Of a stretch of DNA of 64,000 nt, positions 2,044 to 17,009 are shown in pieces (position 1 is the stretch's first letter; the number at the start of each line of letters is the position of its first letter). This stretch comes from Zymoseptoria tritici IPO323. Lineage: Eukaryota; Ascomycota; Dothideomycetes; Mycosphaerellales; Mycosphaerellaceae. The stretch lies in NCBI RefSeq assembly GCF_000219625.1, contig NC_018210.1:1550001-1614000 (forward strand). The letters run 5' to 3'. The position numbers were made by a program, and so were the translations under genes. Under the pieces are notes generated by a model. That model was not told the origin of the DNA, did not search any database, and saw only the letters and a program-made list of their open reading frames with translations.

Positions 2044-3492
2044 ATGGCAACCTCATTACGGGACACTCTGCTCGCTGGGATTGCCAAAGAACGAGTCACC
2101 GACAAGACTCCTCCCACGGCTGGGGATGAGCTGGATGCCGACAGATGTGTACCCCTCCACAATGTGTTAACACTGTACGGCTGGGTCTCTTCCGGCAAGA
2201 AAATCTCAGAACTGAGGAAGCGAACATGGTGGAGCACACACGGGACACCTGAACTGGAGAAAATCCTTCGACCCAAATTACGGCGATATCTGTCAAAGAT
2301 CTTCGAGGTGCCGAATTACAACTTCTTCTACCATGTTTCCGGTCTGGCGTCGCCCAAGCACATGCTGCAACTAGCGGATGTACTTGAAGACGACGACCAT
2401 GTGGAGAAACCAGAGGACAAATACCGATTCGTGATCCTATACAAGACCTCTGAGCATTTGGTCTCGCAGCCAGCAGGCATAGTGTTTGACCAGCAGACGA
2501 GCAAGGCGATTTTGATGCCCACTTATCATCATTTATTTGACCTAAAAGGTGCTGACCTACCATGGCAAAACCTGGAGACGATCTTGTCCGCGTACGTTGA
2601 CATGATCCAAAGCGAGAAGGCTTTGGCCATACATGACGAGGCTATTGTGGAGGATGCAACTGCACAGCACGCCGGCAAAGGCGGAGACTTGGAAAGGAAT
2701 AAGACCTTTGCAAGATACTCCACACGACCATGGATTCTTCAGCCGTACACTCTGGATGATCTGCACGAATGTCTGGATACATGGACGAAGCTTGTCAAAA
2801 CGATCGAGCAGAAAGCTGGCATCAAGCGCAGCGAAGAAGTCGCCCCAGAGGATGAAGCGCCGCTGGCTTCGAGGACAGCGCTGAACATCGCCGAAATCCC
2901 GCGAGGGTTTGCGTATGAGATCTTGTCCCACGCTCGACAATCAGAAGTCTGGTTTGTGGCGCCAGGTTTGCGTTTACCCAAAGTCGAAGAGTTCCTGCAA
3001 CAGCCATTCAAGGATATTCTAAAACAGTATCCCGAAGAGACCAGAGGCATGAAAGTGCCCTTCCTTTTCTTGCGATGTCCTGGAACAGTCAGCGCGAAAG
3101 AAGCCAAGTTCAGATACCCCTTCTCAACATTAGAGTCCGTACCCTGCGGACTATACCTCGATGCATTCCCCAACGCACAGAATCCCTTCGAGGATGCATG
3201 TCGACTGGTGTTACCCATTCGACTAAGCGACAAGCGACGCTACGCACGAACGTCAGATGGACGACTACTGTTCAGAAGTCACAGCGACTTGTATCAGACA
3301 GGTATCAACCCCTTCGTCATGCGTCATGGGCCCAAGCTGGTTGCAGTATTGGACAATTGGAGGAGGCAAGTAGAGACTGGACACTGGGGTGTCAACGAGA
3401 GGGGTGTTGAGGGTGGGATTGGCGTGTGGAGGCAGGCCGAGACGAGAGAGCATTGGTGGCGTTATCAGAGCGATTCGCATTTGTTCATTTAG
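2044..3492 (+). CDS. Conserved hypothetical protein (482 aa)
   Basis: I do not recognise this family. The frame is open from 1888, but the first 52 codons read like a C/T-rich leader. I therefore prefer the Met at 2044 (MATSLRDTLLAGIAKER), giving 482 residues. The product is soluble-looking, mixed charge, without signal peptide, membrane segment or low-complexity tract. It is rich in Trp/Arg near the C-terminus (WRRQVETGHWGVNERG... EHWWRYQSDSHLFI). Sustained codon use and the absence of competing frames support it as a real protein. Alternative start: 1888 (534 aa). Confidence 0.7.
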   Translation: MATSLRDTLLAGIAKERVTDKTPPTAGDELDADRCVPLHNVLTLYGWVSSGKKISELRKRTWWSTHGTPELEKILRPKLRRYLSKIFEVPNYNFFYHVSGLASPKHMLQLADVLEDDDHVEKPEDKYRFVILYKTSEHLVSQPAGIVFDQQTSKAILMPTYHHLFDLKGADLPWQNLETILSAYVDMIQSEKALAIHDEAIVEDATAQHAGKGGDLERNKTFARYSTRPWILQPYTLDDLHECLDTWTKLVKTIEQKAGIKRSEEVAPEDEAPLASRTALNIAEIPRGFAYEILSHARQSEVWFVAPGLRLPKVEEFLQQPFKDILKQYPEETRGMKVPFLFLRCPGTVSAKEAKFRYPFSTLESVPCGLYLDAFPNAQNPFEDACRLVLPIRLSDKRRYARTSDGRLLFRSHSDLYQTGINPFVMRHGPKLVAVLDNWRRQVETGHWGVNERGVEGGIGVWRQAETREHWWRYQSDSHLFI

Positions 3493-5122
3493 GTGATTCT
3501 GGGCCAGGCATGTGCAGGCGAGGTCGGATGGTTTTTGTGTATACAGGAAAGCGTTGATGTAATGCGGAAGCATGAGTGCAGTATGCTTGGGACACATCAG
3601 AGCTAGAGACGACATGTTGATGATCGACGATGACCACCGGGCTCTGCACGCCGCATATCGGTGAGGAGGAAGCTACCACACTGACGCACGATTGTGGCTC
3701 TCTACTTCTGCCGCATCGGGTAAGTTCTACGCTCAACATGCGGGCGTAGAACGACTGCAGACAATCACGCAACGCGCTCATCTAGATTGGGGTGTGCCAT
3801 ACAGTCCTTATCGGCTTCAGCCTTCCAGCATGCTGACCGGCAATTGATCGAAGGACGTTGAGGGAGAACGAGCACATTAAAGCGGATTTCTGCTGAGGTG
3901 GCATGAATACGCGTGAGATTGTCGATCTATAGAGCTTAAAGATCGACAGTCTGCAGAAGCGGTGCAGTAGTGGTGAGCACTATAGGATGTTGCCGGATCT
4001 GCAAAGTTCAAGGCGGTACCAGTGAGAGAGAGCGTAGCAGCTGTCTCGATGGAACTGGAACGTCATGGCGAGAGCAAAGAATATACTTATTCATCGTGTA
4101 CTGTCCCAGAGCGACCTAGAGAGTACGAAGACGCTCCAATCGAGGACGCCGAGTGGGGTACCAACTGCAATGAGGCGTCCGGTACCAAGAACGACAATTA
4201 CCGCTTAAGCAAAAGCTAAGCTCATGTCCAAGCCCTCTATGTCACACCAAGCACTCGACCTCGAAGCTTTTCTCCACGCGGCACGCCTTGGCTGTGCGGC
4301 TGCTCGAGGTCATCCCTGAGACGATCTCTCGTGTTGACCACATGGCAACGTTACACTGCTGTGTGCTGCGCAGCATCTTGTCTCGGCTCTTGGATTGTCG
4401 TGCAACGTCGAGTCGATTATCATTCTTTCTACGATCACGATCAGACCTCACCTCTTTGACTTGACTGTGAGTACTTCTCAAGATCCTCTTCCCAAGAAAG
4501 CCACCGGCGCGAGCGGGGCATGAAGGGTCTGCTGGAGTCGCTATAGCTGCATGTTGCGCTATCTCTCTCCTCCTCTTTTCGATAGCCACCTCGTCAGACC
4601 ACGGCCAGAATAAAGCTAAAGAGCTCATGAAGAGGATGTTCCGGAAGCCCGCAAGCTGCATGAGCTCCCTGCGTTCGCTAGAGCCAATGAACCGTCCATC
4701 TTGGAGCCGCTATCGTGTCGATCAACTCCAAAGCGGGACATTGCAGTGTGGGAGCTCGCGTTGACTGTGATGCTCACACGCATGTCAGTGTGTGTAGCGG
4801 CATCCTCAACAGCGCCGTATTAGATCATGTATGTCGAGGGGCTGAGTTTTTCCCTTGGCGGTGATGATCGTCACTCATACACGGTCGAAAGGCCACATGG
4901 CGATGAGCGGCGATGGTTGCTGGATGAGATATATATTCTCCCTCTCGCTCAAGATGAAGAGAACCATCTCACCATCCAAACCACAGCATCAACAACATCA
5001 GCCACACCAAAGTCAAGAGGCATCTCTCCGCATCTCTTTGCAGCGTCAACACATCGTCTAAAGTCCTCTTGACTAGTTCGGCTTCCTCATCTTTGTGTTG
5101 ACCTCGTCTGCTCACCTCCACG
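3493..5122. other. Intergenic region with two 9-bp inverted repeats
   Basis: No supported gene. It contains perfect 9-bp inverted repeats at 3724-3752 (GTTCTACGC / GCGTAGAAC) and 3920-3948 (TGTCGATCT / AGATCGACA), each with an 11-nt loop. There is also a TATATAT element at 4930-4936 that probably belongs to the next gene. Small ORFs at 4022-4219 and 4242-4661 lack any family features. Confidence 0.6.
4930..4936 (+). promoter_or_regulatory. Putative TATA element of the repeat-precursor gene
   Basis: TATATAT lies 187 nt before the ATG at 5123, followed by a CT-rich leader with CA-rich stretches, as is common in highly expressed fungal genes. Position is only suggestive; no transcription start was measured. 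Confidence 0.35.
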
Positions 5123-7726: not shown

Positions 7727-9079
7727 TTACGCACTGGGGTTGCGCAGGATATCCTCGCAGTTAGCATCGAACCGCATGCTCCACAGACGCATTCCGGTCA
7801 TCATCTTCTCGGTGCGAGCCAATTCCCGATCCCGGCCAAAAATCGCATCGACGAATTCGCACCCGCTGTTCTTTCCCATCGTGACGTTCTTCGCATTGCC
7901 ACTTTCCTTCTTCGCCGCCTTCCACATATAGTTCTCGCAGATTTTCAACAGTTTGTTGAAGCGTTGCCAGAGTCGTTCGCCGGAGTCGAGGAAGTCCTCC
8001 ACCATGTCCCGTGAAGCGGTCGATCGGACCCGTGGAAGGCAGTCTTCGGCGCGCTTGACTTTGTGCGCGAGTTGAATTAGAAGCAGCCAGAGTTCGCCGG
8101 CGACTTCGGACATGGGTGTTGCGGGTCCGTAGAAGAAGACGGTCCAATCGTAGATCCATTTTCCGAGGGAGTTGGCGTCGAAGACGCTGCCGAGGAGGAG
8201 GATTGGTTCTTCGGTTGGATCCCAGTTTTTGTAAGAGTAGCCTGCTGGGATGCCGGCGCGACGCGCATCCGCTTCGGTGGCCTTGGCCGGTGGCGACTTG
8301 CTGGCTGTGCTGGGCCGCGGGCGAGGCGGTGGCACACTTGGCTTGGTCGCGTAGGATGCGCGGCGTGGGCGTGCGTGCTTCGAGGGAGTGTCCGCAGCTG
8401 CTGCTGTGTAAATTGGAACCTGATCGCGGTGTAGATGATCAGTTCGCGGTTCGTAATGGTATTGACTTGTTCGGTAGTAAGGCGGCGGCCGCTGCTCATA
8501 CTGTTCGTAGCGCGGCAGCTCCTCATGCGACCGGTCGTAGTAGTAATCGTCGCCGACATACTCATACTGCGGTCGCGAAGAGTAGTGCTTGCTGTTCGTC
8601 GAGTACTTGCGCTGCTTGGTCTTGGGGGCCGACGAGTCCTTTGTCGGCACGCGATAGTATCGCGTGCTTTCGCGTTTGCGATCAGAGCCACTTACATAGT
8701 CGTTGGTGCGCGGGAGCGGCGTCGTGTGCGCAGACGTGTGGTAAGTGGGCTCCGGAGTCGCATACTGGCCCGTTCGTCGCGGTGCCGTTGTATATGTGTA
8801 GGTGTATGTTGTCGCATCGCCGGTCGCGGTCGCTCTGCGAGTATGTCCCTTTGGTGGAGTCGTGGAAGGGTAGCTGTACTGTCGCGGCGAGTAATATGCG
8901 TATGCGCCGGAGGTCGGTGTCGTCTGCGGCGGCGGCGTGCGATAGCTGCCGAACGAGGCGAAGTTGTGTGGAGGCATCGGATAGCCTGCTGTCTGGAATG
9001 TTGCCATCGAGGGCGAGGCTTCCAGACGCGCCTCGTGGGTTGTGTATCGTGGATTCGATCGGTATGGAGGTCGTTTCAA
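7727..9079 (-). CDS. Fungal conserved protein of the 'vegetative cell wall protein gp1' annotation class
   Basis: A 450-residue single-exon protein. Residues 1 to about 265 are low complexity, rich in Tyr, Thr, Pro, Arg and Ser (YTYTYTTAPRR, PPPRPRPSTASKSPPAK). The last 170 residues form a conserved, probably helical domain beginning near IPAGYSYKNWDPTEEPILL, with SLGKWIYDWTVFFYG and GELWLLLIQLAHKVKRAEDCL. I recall this C-terminal block from many Dothideomycete and Eurotiomycete proteins labelled after the algal gp1 because of the Pro-rich part. The label says nothing reliable about function. No signal peptide is visible, so a cell-wall location is doubtful. A second Met at 9007 (MATFQTAGYP) is a plausible alternative start. 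Confidence 0.75.
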   Translation of the reverse strand: MKRPPYRSNPRYTTHEARLEASPSMATFQTAGYPMPPHNFASFGSYRTPPPQTTPTSGAYAYYSPRQYSYPSTTPPKGHTRRATATGDATTYTYTYTTAPRRTGQYATPEPTYHTSAHTTPLPRTNDYVSGSDRKRESTRYYRVPTKDSSAPKTKQRKYSTNSKHYSSRPQYEYVGDDYYYDRSHEELPRYEQYEQRPPPYYRTSQYHYEPRTDHLHRDQVPIYTAAAADTPSKHARPRRASYATKPSVPPPRPRPSTASKSPPAKATEADARRAGIPAGYSYKNWDPTEEPILLLGSVFDANSLGKWIYDWTVFFYGPATPMSEVAGELWLLLIQLAHKVKRAEDCLPRVRSTASRDMVEDFLDSGERLWQRFNKLLKICENYMWKAAKKESGNAKNVTMGKNSGCEFVDAIFGRDRELARTEKMMTGMRLWSMRFDANCEDILRNPSA

Positions 9080-14204: not shown

Positions 14205-15385
<1,181 letters not shown>

Positions 15386-15947
15386 AAAGAGAGTGGGAGA
15401 GAAGGTGGGACAAGTGGACGGTGGAGAATTGGATCATAGAGGATACCTGCATAGGAGGGGGTTTCGCAAGAATGATTTGCATAGAGCGCTGGTTCGCAGC
15501 GTGCATATATTGTTAAAAGAGCGTAGATAAAGTTGGTGCGCATCAAATCACAAAATCATCGCGAGAGCAATAGTCCTCCGACCTGTTGAAGATCTGCCGG
15601 GGCCTCGTTGAGTAGGCTCAAAAGTGCAATCTCCCTTCCCTTTCTTTCCACTTCTCCTCACTCCTCCTCCTCGCAGCTCGCCGATCTCCAGGCTCGGGAA
15701 TATACTGAAGCCAGCTTCGTGGCTTGAGTGAAGACTCGATCTCGAGTCTACGGCAATCTGCCGTTCAAAAGCAATTCCTGCTTTTCACCCATGTCAGCTA
15801 GACAGGGTGAAAGGTGCATTTCGCACCTCGATCAAAGACAGATCATCTTCGGTGGAAGATAAAAGTCTCAGTACGAGACTTTTAGCACATTTCGTGCTCG
15901 ATAAATGACCACCTTACGTGGTCATACCGCTCCTTTCCGCCTCCTCT
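15386..15947. other. Convergent intergenic spacer carrying the hairpin array
   Basis: The first 320 nt hold the epimerase 3' flank, a short TTGAG/CTCAA hairpin (15608-15621) and a pyrimidine-rich run (about 15627-15675). From 15708 to 15925 the sequence is a continuous series of hairpins. The decapping-enzyme stop codon lies at 15948-15950, only 22 nt beyond. Confidence 0.7.
15708..15925. repeat. End-to-end array of eleven stem-loops with unrelated stems
   Basis: In order (stem; loop): 15708-15725 AAGCCA; GCTTCG. 15732-15749 AGACTC; GATCTC. 15750-15764 ACGGC; AATCT. 15767-15785 AAAAGCA; ATTCC. 15783-15812 TTTCACCC plus TGTC (1-nt bulge); AGCTA. 15812-15828 AGGTGC; ATTTC. 15830-15844 GATC; 7 nt. 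15845-15860 ATCTTC; GGTG. 15860-15884 TAAAAGTCTC (10 bp); AGTAC. 15884-15898 AGCAC; ATTTC. 15905-15925 ATGACCAC; CTTAC. Spacers are 0-6 nt and several neighbours share end bases. Stems are perfect (one bulge) and not related to each other, while loops are mostly 5 nt, often of form AnnnC. On the minus strand the array begins 22 nt after the decapping-enzyme stop codon, so it would lie in that mRNA's 3' UTR. Confidence 0.9.
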
Positions 15948-17009
15948 TCAGCCACTGCCAGTTGGCTCAGAGTCCCCGCTCACCATCGGCTCCCTCCCCT
16001 CCTTCAACGGCAAATAAATCCTCGTCCACAATTCACTCGCCTCCCCGATCGTATACCCCAACTCCACCATCTGCATGCCCGCCTCCTCGTCCCCACCTTC
16101 CATATGTTCCAGTTGAGAAATCACATGATCCAACCCCAACGCTTTGCCAATCGCTTGCGTCCCCGTCGCATCGAGGTTGACATGCACGATGTGGATATGG
16201 AAATGATAATACGTGGGCTGGTAATGCACATAGAATTTCAACATATCGACTTCCACATCGGGGTACATTCCCGCCACCGTCGTAGCAAGGGTAGAGCGGA
16301 GATGTCGCAGCCAAGGGACGGAAGACTTCTTCAGGTCTCGCACGGACCAGATATCGCGACGGGAGACGAGAGCGAGGAGGTGCAGTGACGACTCCGTTTG
16401 GCGATCCCAGTTCAAATCCGGGAGGAGGAGGAAGTCGTCTTGAGGATCCGACTCGGCGGAGCGGAAGAGGACGTTTTCTTGTTCTTTGCGGCCTTCGAGG
16501 ATGTTGAAGACCCAGTTTAAACGCCCTTCTTCCCGGCATAGACGCATGTACGGACGTACATACTTGGAGTAGATTTCGGGGGTTTCGACGACGTAGCGGA
16601 CTTGTTGGAAGGAGTGTTTCTGGATGTGCTTTTCTGTGCACGGGTAGATGAGGTTGAGTTTGAGGTCGGGAGGGGTGGGGTTGTCGAGGGTCTTGGTGGG
16701 GGTGCTGGAGGCGAGGTACCAGCGGTAGATGTCGTTGTCGCCGAGGTTTTGGATGTGGGAGAGGAGTTTGGGGAGAGAGGTGAGGTGTCGTGGGTCCGTG
16801 GAGAAGGCGCCGCGTTCGGCGATGAGGAGGGCTGGCTGGGAGCTGATTGTTCCGAGGAGGATGATGCGGCGGCCTTGAGAGGTGGTGTTGAGGAGGCGGG
16901 TGAATTTGAAGTCGGTGAGGAGGGAGTTGGTTGCAGTTTGGGAGGTGGATGCCGTCTTGGAGTTGTCCTCCGTTTGAGAGCTGGCTGCCTCCTGGGGTAC
17001 TTCTGCCAT
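15948..17009 (-). CDS. DCS1: Scavenger mRNA-decapping enzyme (DcpS/Dcs1, HIT family)
   Basis: A 353-residue single-exon protein, typical for the family. The N-terminal domain (about 30-160) contains the DcpS-type segment IYRWYLASS and the block IYPCTEKHIQKHS. The C-terminal HIT domain contains the histidine triad HFHIHIVH (H269, H271, H273); by homology to human DcpS the middle His is the nucleophile. DcpS hydrolyses the m7GpppN cap fragments left after 3'-to-5' mRNA decay and acts as a dimer in cytoplasm and nucleus. The start ATG at 17009 begins MAEVPQEAASSQ; the first 30 residues are polar and disordered. Its 3' end runs directly into the hairpin array at 15708-15925. Confidence 0.95.
   Translation of the reverse strand: MAEVPQEAASSQTEDNSKTASTSQTATNSLLTDFKFTRLLNTTSQGRRIILLGTISSQPALLIAERGAFSTDPRHLTSLPKLLSHIQNLGDNDIYRWYLASSTPTKTLDNPTPPDLKLNLIYPCTEKHIQKHSFQQVRYVVETPEIYSKYVRPYMRLCREEGRLNWVFNILEGRKEQENVLFRSAESDPQDDFLLLPDLNWDRQTESSLHLLALVSRRDIWSVRDLKKSSVPWLRHLRSTLATTVAGMYPDVEVDMLKFYVHYQPTYYHFHIHIVHVNLDATGTQAIGKALGLDHVISQLEHMEGGDEEAGMQMVELGYTIGEASELWTRIYLPLKEGREPMVSGDSEPTGSG

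What the first reader, a model, noticed from the sequence alone, without database searches (positions are those of the whole stretch)
15708..15925. Eleven stem-loops packed end to end between convergent genes
Over 218 nt nearly every base belongs to one of eleven hairpins. The stems are perfect (one single-base bulge), differ in sequence, and reach 8, 10 and 12 bp (12 = TTTCACCC plus TGTC). Loops are mostly 5 nt (AATCT, ATTCC, AGCTA, ATTTC twice, AGTAC, CTTAC). Spacers are 0-6 nt. A 5-bp hairpin with a short loop is expected about once per 200 nt by chance, so this density is far outside chance. It is not a tandem repeat, because stems are unrelated: what repeats is the shape. I know no named fungal element with this form. 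Hypotheses: a structured 3' UTR/terminator of DCS1 (array starts 22 nt past its stop) shielding against read-through from the convergent epimerase gene; a structured ncRNA; or a scar of repeated snap-back DNA synthesis, in which a 3' end folds, copies a few bases and is extended again.
Basis: partly seen in the sequence, partly recalled or inferred. Interest (0 to 1): 0.88.

Follow-up and report, generated by a model that had tools for sequence, protein, structure and literature searches.

The report
Eleven-hairpin array after fungal decapping gene
A 222-base stretch just past the end of a fungal mRNA-decay gene is almost entirely made of eleven back-to-back hairpins, a density far beyond chance, and may be a structured tail of that gene's messenger RNA or a striking mutational scar.

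Summary
Window 15704-15925 holds eleven adjacent hairpins with 80 base pairs, all Watson-Crick; 211 of 222 bases lie inside a hairpin. It folds 8-9 SD below dinucleotide shuffles as RNA on either strand and as DNA. Shuffled sequence totalling 39.7 Mb never exceeded 80 paired bases in 220 nt; here there are 120. In 280 kb sampled elsewhere in the genome (recalled as Zymoseptoria tritici IPO323) no window matches it in both hairpin count and energy. One AT-rich degraded stretch, L012, comes near in count (107, also beyond chance) but not in energy. No second copy was found and no Rfam family reaches its threshold.

The array starts 22 nt after the stop codon of a DcpS/DCS1 gene. On the DCS1-sense strand 4 of 6 five-base loops are GNRA plus one base, against 5 of 178 control readings. 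Best reading: a structured 3' UTR of DCS1, written and kept perfect by template switching, that shields the mRNA end or stops convergent transcription. Function is inferred. Orthologous DNA and RNA data were out of reach, and a recent neutral scar remains a close rival.

The parts
15704..15729 (.). hairpin 1: 3+6 bp with G.G mismatch, 6-nt loop
15732..15749 (.). hairpin 2: 7 bp, 4-nt loop
15750..15764 (.). hairpin 3: 6 bp, 3-nt loop
15767..15785 (.). hairpin 4: 7 bp, 5-nt loop (GGAAU on the - strand)
15783..15812 (.). hairpin 5: 8+4 bp with one bulged base, 5-nt loop; shares 3 bases with hairpin 4
15812..15828 (.). hairpin 6: 6 bp, 5-nt loop (GAAAU on the - strand)
15830..15844 (.). hairpin 7: 4 bp, 7-nt loop; the weakest
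15845..15860 (.). hairpin 8: 6 bp, 4-nt loop
15860..15884 (.). hairpin 9: 10 bp, 5-nt loop
15884..15898 (.). hairpin 10: 5 bp, 5-nt loop (GAAAU on the - strand)
15905..15925 (.). hairpin 11: 8 bp, 5-nt loop (GUAAG on the - strand); first after the DCS1 stop
15948..17009 (-). DCS1: DcpS scavenger mRNA decapping enzyme (353 aa)
   Evidence: Pfam PF05652 and PF11969; 95% or 97% identical to a protein named as Z. tritici ST99CH_1E4
   Evidence: Pfam PF01370 on 14205-14960; ORFs; sequence
15626..15703 (-). stretch 74% purine in DCS1 sense, beyond the array; perhaps continuing DCS1 3' UTR
   Evidence: composition; inference
15926..15947 (-). 22-nt stretch, 86% purine in DCS1 sense, between the DCS1 stop and the array
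   Evidence: composition

Best explanation
The array is a structured 3' UTR (or 3'-proximal terminator region) of DCS1. Shown: eleven adjacent hairpins beginning 22 nt after the DCS1 stop, perfect on both strands, far beyond chance. Inferred: the DCS1 transcript runs through it and folds into a string of hairpins; short replicative template switches wrote or repaired the stems, which is why all 80 pairs are Watson-Crick; the string either blocks 3'-to-5' exonucleolysis of DCS1 mRNA or stalls polymerase and limits read-through between the two convergent genes. Because stems without G.U pairs fold about equally well on both strands, it could serve both directions.
For: Position 22 nt past the DCS1 stop. 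The stop is supported: 6 of 6 other DcpS proteins aligned (4 of named other species, 2 unnamed JGI) end 4-9 alignment columns before it. Purine-rich DCS1-sense sequence flanks the array on both sides (0.86 and 0.74); after ORF ends in this genome the first 100 nt average 0.54 and later stretches 0.48-0.50. GNRA-like loops on the DCS1-sense strand: 4 of 6 pentaloops, against 5 of 178 control strand readings, and 0 of 6 on the other strand. Fold z -8 to -11. Stop codons in all six frames. Precedents: stem-loops in yeast 3' UTRs stabilise isoforms, with the model that they block the exosome (PMC4178928, first of two parts read); hairpin clusters after stop codons terminate transcription in bacteria (PMC8355165, abstract and sections 7-8); template switching creates and maintains perfect stems, with GNRA loops enriched (PMC8794818, abstract and passages).
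Against: No RNA data and no orthologous DNA, so transcription, poly(A) site, conservation and function are untested. The loop test is post hoc, and two of its four loops are identical. GNRA loops are also stable in DNA and enriched in template-switch hairpins, so they do not prove RNA selection; in the same study 5-nt loops, the commonest here, are depleted (11.7% against 16.8%) and 4-nt loops enriched (PMC8794818). Energy does not favour the DCS1 strand: hairpin sum -86.7 (-) against -89.0 kcal/mol (+). No TAYRTA or AAWAAA element in the spacer on either strand, only one-mismatch AATAAA words, on both strands. Hairpins are not enriched in the 400 nt after ORFs. L012, in an AT-rich degraded element with no sign of a 3' UTR, also holds 9 perfect hairpins in 220 nt, which suggests hairpin runs can arise without such a role. 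In plants structured 3' UTRs destabilise mRNA (PMC10885604, abstract), so even the sign of an effect is uncertain.
Confidence: 0.38

Rival explanations
1. A recent mutational scar with no function: serial short template switches or self-primed synthesis wrote the hairpins, perhaps as an insertion, and they have not yet decayed.
For: Perfect pairing with stems unrelated in sequence; 1 mismatch and 1 bulge over 80 pairs, so if neutral the array must be young. No second copy found. Perfect hairpins are in excess in unassigned non-coding DNA (27 observed, 16.7 expected for 8 bp or more; 11 and 3.7 for 9 or more), and L012 2040-2259 holds 9 perfect hairpins, above 100 of 100 Markov runs at each of orders 1-3. 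Purine-rich DCS1-sense sequence appears interrupted by the array, and ATAC occurs at both edges (not beyond chance by my rough estimate). Template switching can make perfect hairpins in one event (PMC8794818).
Against: Eleven adjacent events are needed, and I saw no such series described in the listings and passages read. The array's 10-mers are not over-represented in about 5 kb on each side (2, with 5.4 expected). One DNA_pol_A match in the genome, 69 bits and partial, perhaps the mitochondrial polymerase, so no sign of Pol theta (a six-frame search can miss it). Loops are not random.
Confidence: 0.34
2. An independent structured non-coding RNA, or a captured fragment of an RNA replicon, in the spacer; structure on both strands would suit an RNA copied through both strands.
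For: Similar folding of both strands and no G.U pairs.
Against: No Rfam family at threshold; one exact 25-mer not found in viral contigs (a narrow test that may leave out records of this genome); no second copy; stop codons in all frames. Promoters and viral proteins were not searched for.
Confidence: 0.1
3. A DNA-level element: cruciform-prone palindromes that exclude nucleosomes or mark a boundary or fragile site between the genes.
For: DNA fold z -9.3; most short inverted repeats at yeast gene ends have low nucleosome occupancy (PMC6420913, abstract and sections 14 and 18).
Against: The yeast repeats enriched near poly(A) sites are AT-rich; arms here are 4-12 bp and mixed; those authors favour an RNA-level role at gene ends; no chromatin data here.
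Confidence: 0.1
4. Chance clustering or base composition.
For: None beyond the general possibility; L012, which I first took for a case of composition, exceeds Markov sequence of order 1-3 as well.
Against: 0 of 620 whole-window shuffles (39.7 Mb) and 0 of 20,000 array shuffles approach the array; 0 of 100 Markov runs at each of orders 1-3.
Confidence: 0.01

Closest known systems
Stabilising stem-loops in yeast 3' UTRs (Moqtaderi, Geisberg, Struhl; PMC4178928)
   Same: Hairpins between stop codon and mRNA 3' end in an ascomycete
   Different: There stem-loops or poly(U)-poly(A) pairing near the 3' terminus; here eleven adjacent hairpins, with transcription not shown
Hairpin clusters as intrinsic terminators in bacteria (PMC8355165)
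   Same: Cluster close to the stop codon, stems mostly 4-10 bp, short loops
   Different: Bacterial polymerase; average 3 hairpins per cluster, with numbers falling exponentially; here eleven in a eukaryotic nucleus
Short inverted repeats near poly(A) sites in yeast (PMC6420913)
   Same: Similar size class (arms of 5 or more, spacer up to 8) after genes
   Different: AT-rich types there; no such enrichment after ORFs in this genome sample
Hairpins made by replicative template switching (PMC8794818)
   Same: Perfect stems, GNRA-type loops enriched
   Different: Stems of known RNA genes, 4-nt loops favoured; no run of eleven in the passages read
Double-hairpin and repetitive hairpin elements of mitochondrial genomes (listing only, e.g. 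PMC2800124; details recalled)
   Same: Hairpins in spacers
   Different: Repeated sequences in organelles; this is a nuclear locus with no second copy found and unrelated stems

Membership tests
Structured fungal 3' UTR | Lies downstream of a stop codon on the coding strand | tested here: met
   22 nt past the DCS1 stop; stop position supported by 6 of 6 other DcpS proteins aligned
Structured fungal 3' UTR | Included in the mature mRNA | not testable with these tools
   no RNA data; only indirect composition support
Structured fungal 3' UTR | More structured than shuffled sequence | tested here: met
   - strand z -8.32
Structured fungal 3' UTR | Structure conserved by compensatory change | not testable with these tools
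   no orthologous DNA held
Bacterial-type hairpin-cluster terminator | Hairpins less than 15 nt apart, within 80 nt of the stop | tested here: met
   first hairpin 22 nt from the stop, gaps up to 6 nt; the array as a whole extends to 244 nt
Bacterial-type hairpin-cluster terminator | Acts on bacterial RNA polymerase | tested here: not met
   eukaryotic gene context (inferred intron; fungal DcpS relatives); not a member
Yeast-type poly(A)-site inverted repeats | Short inverted repeats enriched after genes in the genome | tested here: not met
   observed/expected 0.80, 1.00, 0.90 and 0.75 in 36 kb after ORFs for stems of 6, 7, 8 and 9 bp or more; gene ends approximated by ORFs
Mobile or tandem repeat | More than one copy, or tandem units | tested here: not met
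   one match, itself, at E<=10 (only best candidates are scored there); internal similarity not significant, reached by 0.065 of nulls
Known RNA family (Rfam 15) | Match at gathering score | tested here: not met
   none in the window; best sub-threshold match over the array SNORD15, 16.8 bits against 75, E 0.65
miRNA-like hairpin locus | One hairpin with a stem long enough for a ~20-nt duplex | tested here: not met
   longest stem 12 bp with a bulge; the ~20-nt requirement is recalled

The most novel reading that the evidence does not exclude
A nuclear element in which shape rather than sequence repeats: a symmetric, both-strand hairpin string between convergent genes, written by repeated template switching and kept as a bidirectional terminator or exonuclease shield. 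I found no described eukaryotic nuclear case in the listings (one search returned none).
Probability: 0.15. Interest if true: 0.85.

Novelty: new variant of a known kind. Interest (0 to 1): 0.58.

Why it matters
Perfect stems are hard to evolve base by base. A run of eleven unrelated perfect hairpins in one spacer is a natural test case for whether template switching writes RNA structure. If it is transcribed, it would show an extreme structural barrier at an mRNA end, on the gene for an mRNA-decay enzyme. Its age and function could be read from strain genomes and RNA-seq.

Tried and rejected
Chance and composition: rejected for the array. L012 2040-2259, the nearest rival: I first put it down to AT-rich composition, because its fold is z -1.2 and its local-hairpin energy z -1.8, 12 of 200 shuffles as low. 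Its hairpin count is not explained that way: 102 paired bases against a maximum of 76 in 300 shuffles, and 107 against at most 90 in 100 Markov runs at each of orders 1-3. Weaker clusters at L016 3191-3510 and L008 2750-3090 looked similar by eye, but their paired-base scores (58 and 54) lie in the range that shuffles give; L016 does fold at z -4.5.

Second copies: none found. Known RNA families: none at threshold. Viral contigs: one exact 25-mer, 0 hits. Internal duplication (hairpins 6-8 against 10-11): 0.065 of nulls as high. Local templates: not above chance. Enrichment of hairpins after ORFs: none. XRN-family loci were fetched to look at other decay genes, but they are short pieces round the N-terminal domain and were not used for that; they entered the control counts. 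Literature searches returned nothing, and one paper not used. miRNA-like origin: stems too short; the passages search of PMC9757828 found Zymoseptoria 0 times in the main text, although the listing counts it once in the full text.

Full report
What is there. Window 15704-15925 consists of eleven hairpins laid end to end. There are 80 base pairs, every one Watson-Crick, with 154 distinct bases paired and 211 of 222 bases inside a hairpin. Defects are one G.G mismatch (hairpin 1) and one bulged base (hairpin 5). Stems run from 4 to 12 bp. Hairpin 7 is weak (-1.4 kcal/mol on the + strand); the others range from about -4 to -16 kcal/mol over both strands. The minimum-energy and centroid folds of a 251-nt segment on the + strand contain this string of hairpins.

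Is it beyond chance? As RNA the segment folds at z -9.15 (+) and -8.32 (-), as DNA at -9.30, with 0 of 200 shuffles as good in each. With pairs limited to local spans and G.U excluded, 6793 windows of 200 nt were scored; z was computed for the 45 top non-overlapping ones, and the array has -11.3 and the next -5.3. By perfect hairpins (5 bp or more, loops 3-8) the best 220-nt window has 120 paired bases and 9 hairpins. 620 shuffles of the 64-kb window, together the size of the genome, never exceeded 80 paired bases or 8 hairpins; 20,000 shuffles of the array never exceeded 68. Markov sequence of order 1-3 from the window reached 68 in 100 runs of 4550 nt each.

Is it common in this genome? The held genome has 39,686,251 bases in 21 contigs and the window is on C9. 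I recall these sizes as Zymoseptoria tritici IPO323; a DcpS protein named as Z. tritici ST99CH_1E4 is 95-97% identical. Twenty-eight 10-kb stretches (280 kb: 20 from C1 and one each from C2, C3, C4, C5, C6, C7, C8 and C10) were scanned with the window. In one search, 3072 windows of 220 nt were folded and z was computed for the 40 with the largest residuals. One long inverted repeat (L003 6711-6930, z -22.3) lies below the array (z -10.4), with a single short hairpin; the next after the array is -7.1. About 0.9% of the genome was scanned, so further arrays are not excluded.

A partial second case. L012 2040-2259, in an AT-rich (26% GC) stretch with no frame of 100 aa before 5816, has 107 paired bases and 9 perfect hairpins in 220 nt. 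Its energy is ordinary (z -1.2; local -1.8), so I first called it composition. That does not hold for the count: no one of 300 shuffles passed 76 against its 102, and no one of 100 Markov runs at each of orders 1, 2 and 3 passed 90 against 107. Unassigned non-coding DNA, with L012 left out, also has more long perfect hairpins than shuffles (218 against 189.0 for 6 bp or more, 72 against 51.7 for 7, 27 against 16.7 for 8, 11 against 3.7 for 9), while the 400 nt after ORFs have none in excess (39 against 48.7, 11 against 11.0, 3 against 3.3, 1 against 1.3) and coding ORFs have a deficit (150 against 180.0 for 6 bp or more) (classes are rough, from ORFs). This leans towards a mutational source of perfect hairpins in unconstrained DNA. 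L012 was left out of the counts.

Surroundings. The + strand gene ending at 15385 belongs to the NAD-dependent epimerase family and the - strand gene ending at 15948 is a DcpS/DCS1 scavenger decapping enzyme. Six other DcpS proteins, four of named species and two unnamed, end 4-9 alignment columns before the Z. tritici stop, so the array is downstream of the gene. All six frames of the array have stops. The 22 nt between stop and array are 86% purine in DCS1 sense and the 78 nt beyond the array (15626-15703) are 74% purine; 15386-15545 on the epimerase side is 66% purine on the + strand. In 95 sampled ORF ends (89 in the first bin) the first 100 nt after the stop average 54% purine and later bins 48-50%. 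This suggests, weakly, that DCS1 3' UTR sequence continues beyond the array, which lies inside it or was inserted in it.

Which strand? Six loops are five nt long with maximal stems. On the DCS1-sense strand they are GGAAU, UAGCU, GAAAU, GUACU, GAAAU and GUAAG. Four of six are GNRA plus one base, and 0 of 6 on the other strand. Among 89 control pentaloop hairpins, 5 of 178 strand readings are GNRA plus one. The script printed 2e-5 for 4 of 7; for 4 of 6 my arithmetic gives about 1e-5. The test is post hoc and two of the four loops are identical. Against this, the hairpin energies sum to -89.0 (+) and -86.7 (-), so energy does not pick the DCS1 strand.

How did it arise? Template switching in replication can make a perfect stem in one event and repair it later; GNRA and 4-nt loops are enriched in such hairpins, 5-nt loops depleted (PMC8794818, abstract and passages). 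Stems with no G.U pair fit that; structural RNAs that evolve base by base usually carry some G.U pairs (recalled). A break-repair scar copied from nearby DNA is not supported: the flanks hold 2 of the array's 10-mers against 5.4 expected. A single, partial 69-bit DNA_pol_A match was found in the genome, so there is no sign of a second A-family polymerase such as Pol theta, though a six-frame search can miss one. A weak likeness of hairpins 6-8 to 10-11 is not significant (0.065 of 200 structure-preserving nulls).

How does it work? If it works, most likely at the RNA level in the DCS1 transcript. Yeast 3' UTR stem-loops raise isoform stability, with the model that they block the exosome (PMC4178928, first part); structured 3' UTRs lower stability in plants (PMC10885604, abstract). 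[quoted passage not shown] A both-strand structure between convergent genes could act in both directions. All of this is inference. The neutral alternative, a young scar, makes the opposite prediction for sister species, and no orthologous DNA or RNA data could be reached.

Novelty. No Rfam family reaches its gathering score in the window; the best sub-threshold match over the array is SNORD15 at 16.8 bits against 75. No second copy was found, and the listings showed no described fungal nuclear hairpin array (one search returned none). I class it as a new variant of a known kind (structured 3' regions and hairpin clusters), extreme in number and density.

Noticed in passing
L012 2040-2259 (G000 C1 2102040-2102259): AT-rich degraded stretch with 9 perfect hairpins in 220 nt, beyond dinucleotide shuffles and Markov order 1-3 in count but ordinary in energy. 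It looks like a RIP-degraded repeat (recalled pattern, not searched).
   Followed up: partly
window plus L002-L029 without L012, unassigned non-coding class: Excess of long perfect short-loop hairpins (11 observed, 3.7 expected for stems of 9 bp or more) away from ORFs.
   Followed up: partly
L003 6711-6930 (G000 C1 306711-306930): Very strong long inverted repeat: -173 kcal/mol in 220 nt, z -22.3.
   Followed up: no
L005 about 7880-7960 and L020 about 8190-8270: Two places with long imperfect inverted arms that share the word TAATAGAGCTCGCG; perhaps one small repeat family.
   Followed up: no
L016 3191-3510 (C1): Several perfect 6-10 bp hairpins with 3-5 nt loops in a spacer between ORFs that point at each other (ends at 1950 and 3948); fold z -4.5 for 3291-3510, but paired-base score within what shuffles give.
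   Followed up: partly
window 15948-17009: The two Z. tritici DCS1 sequences end 4-9 columns later and start earlier than the six other DcpS proteins aligned.
   Followed up: no
window 15702-15705 and 15924-15927: The word ATAC stands at both edges of the array; possible microhomology or target duplication, but likely enough by chance to carry little weight (rough estimate).
   Followed up: partly
window 15682-15694 and 15737-15749: 13-nt direct repeat, 85% identical, one copy outside and one inside the array.
   Followed up: no
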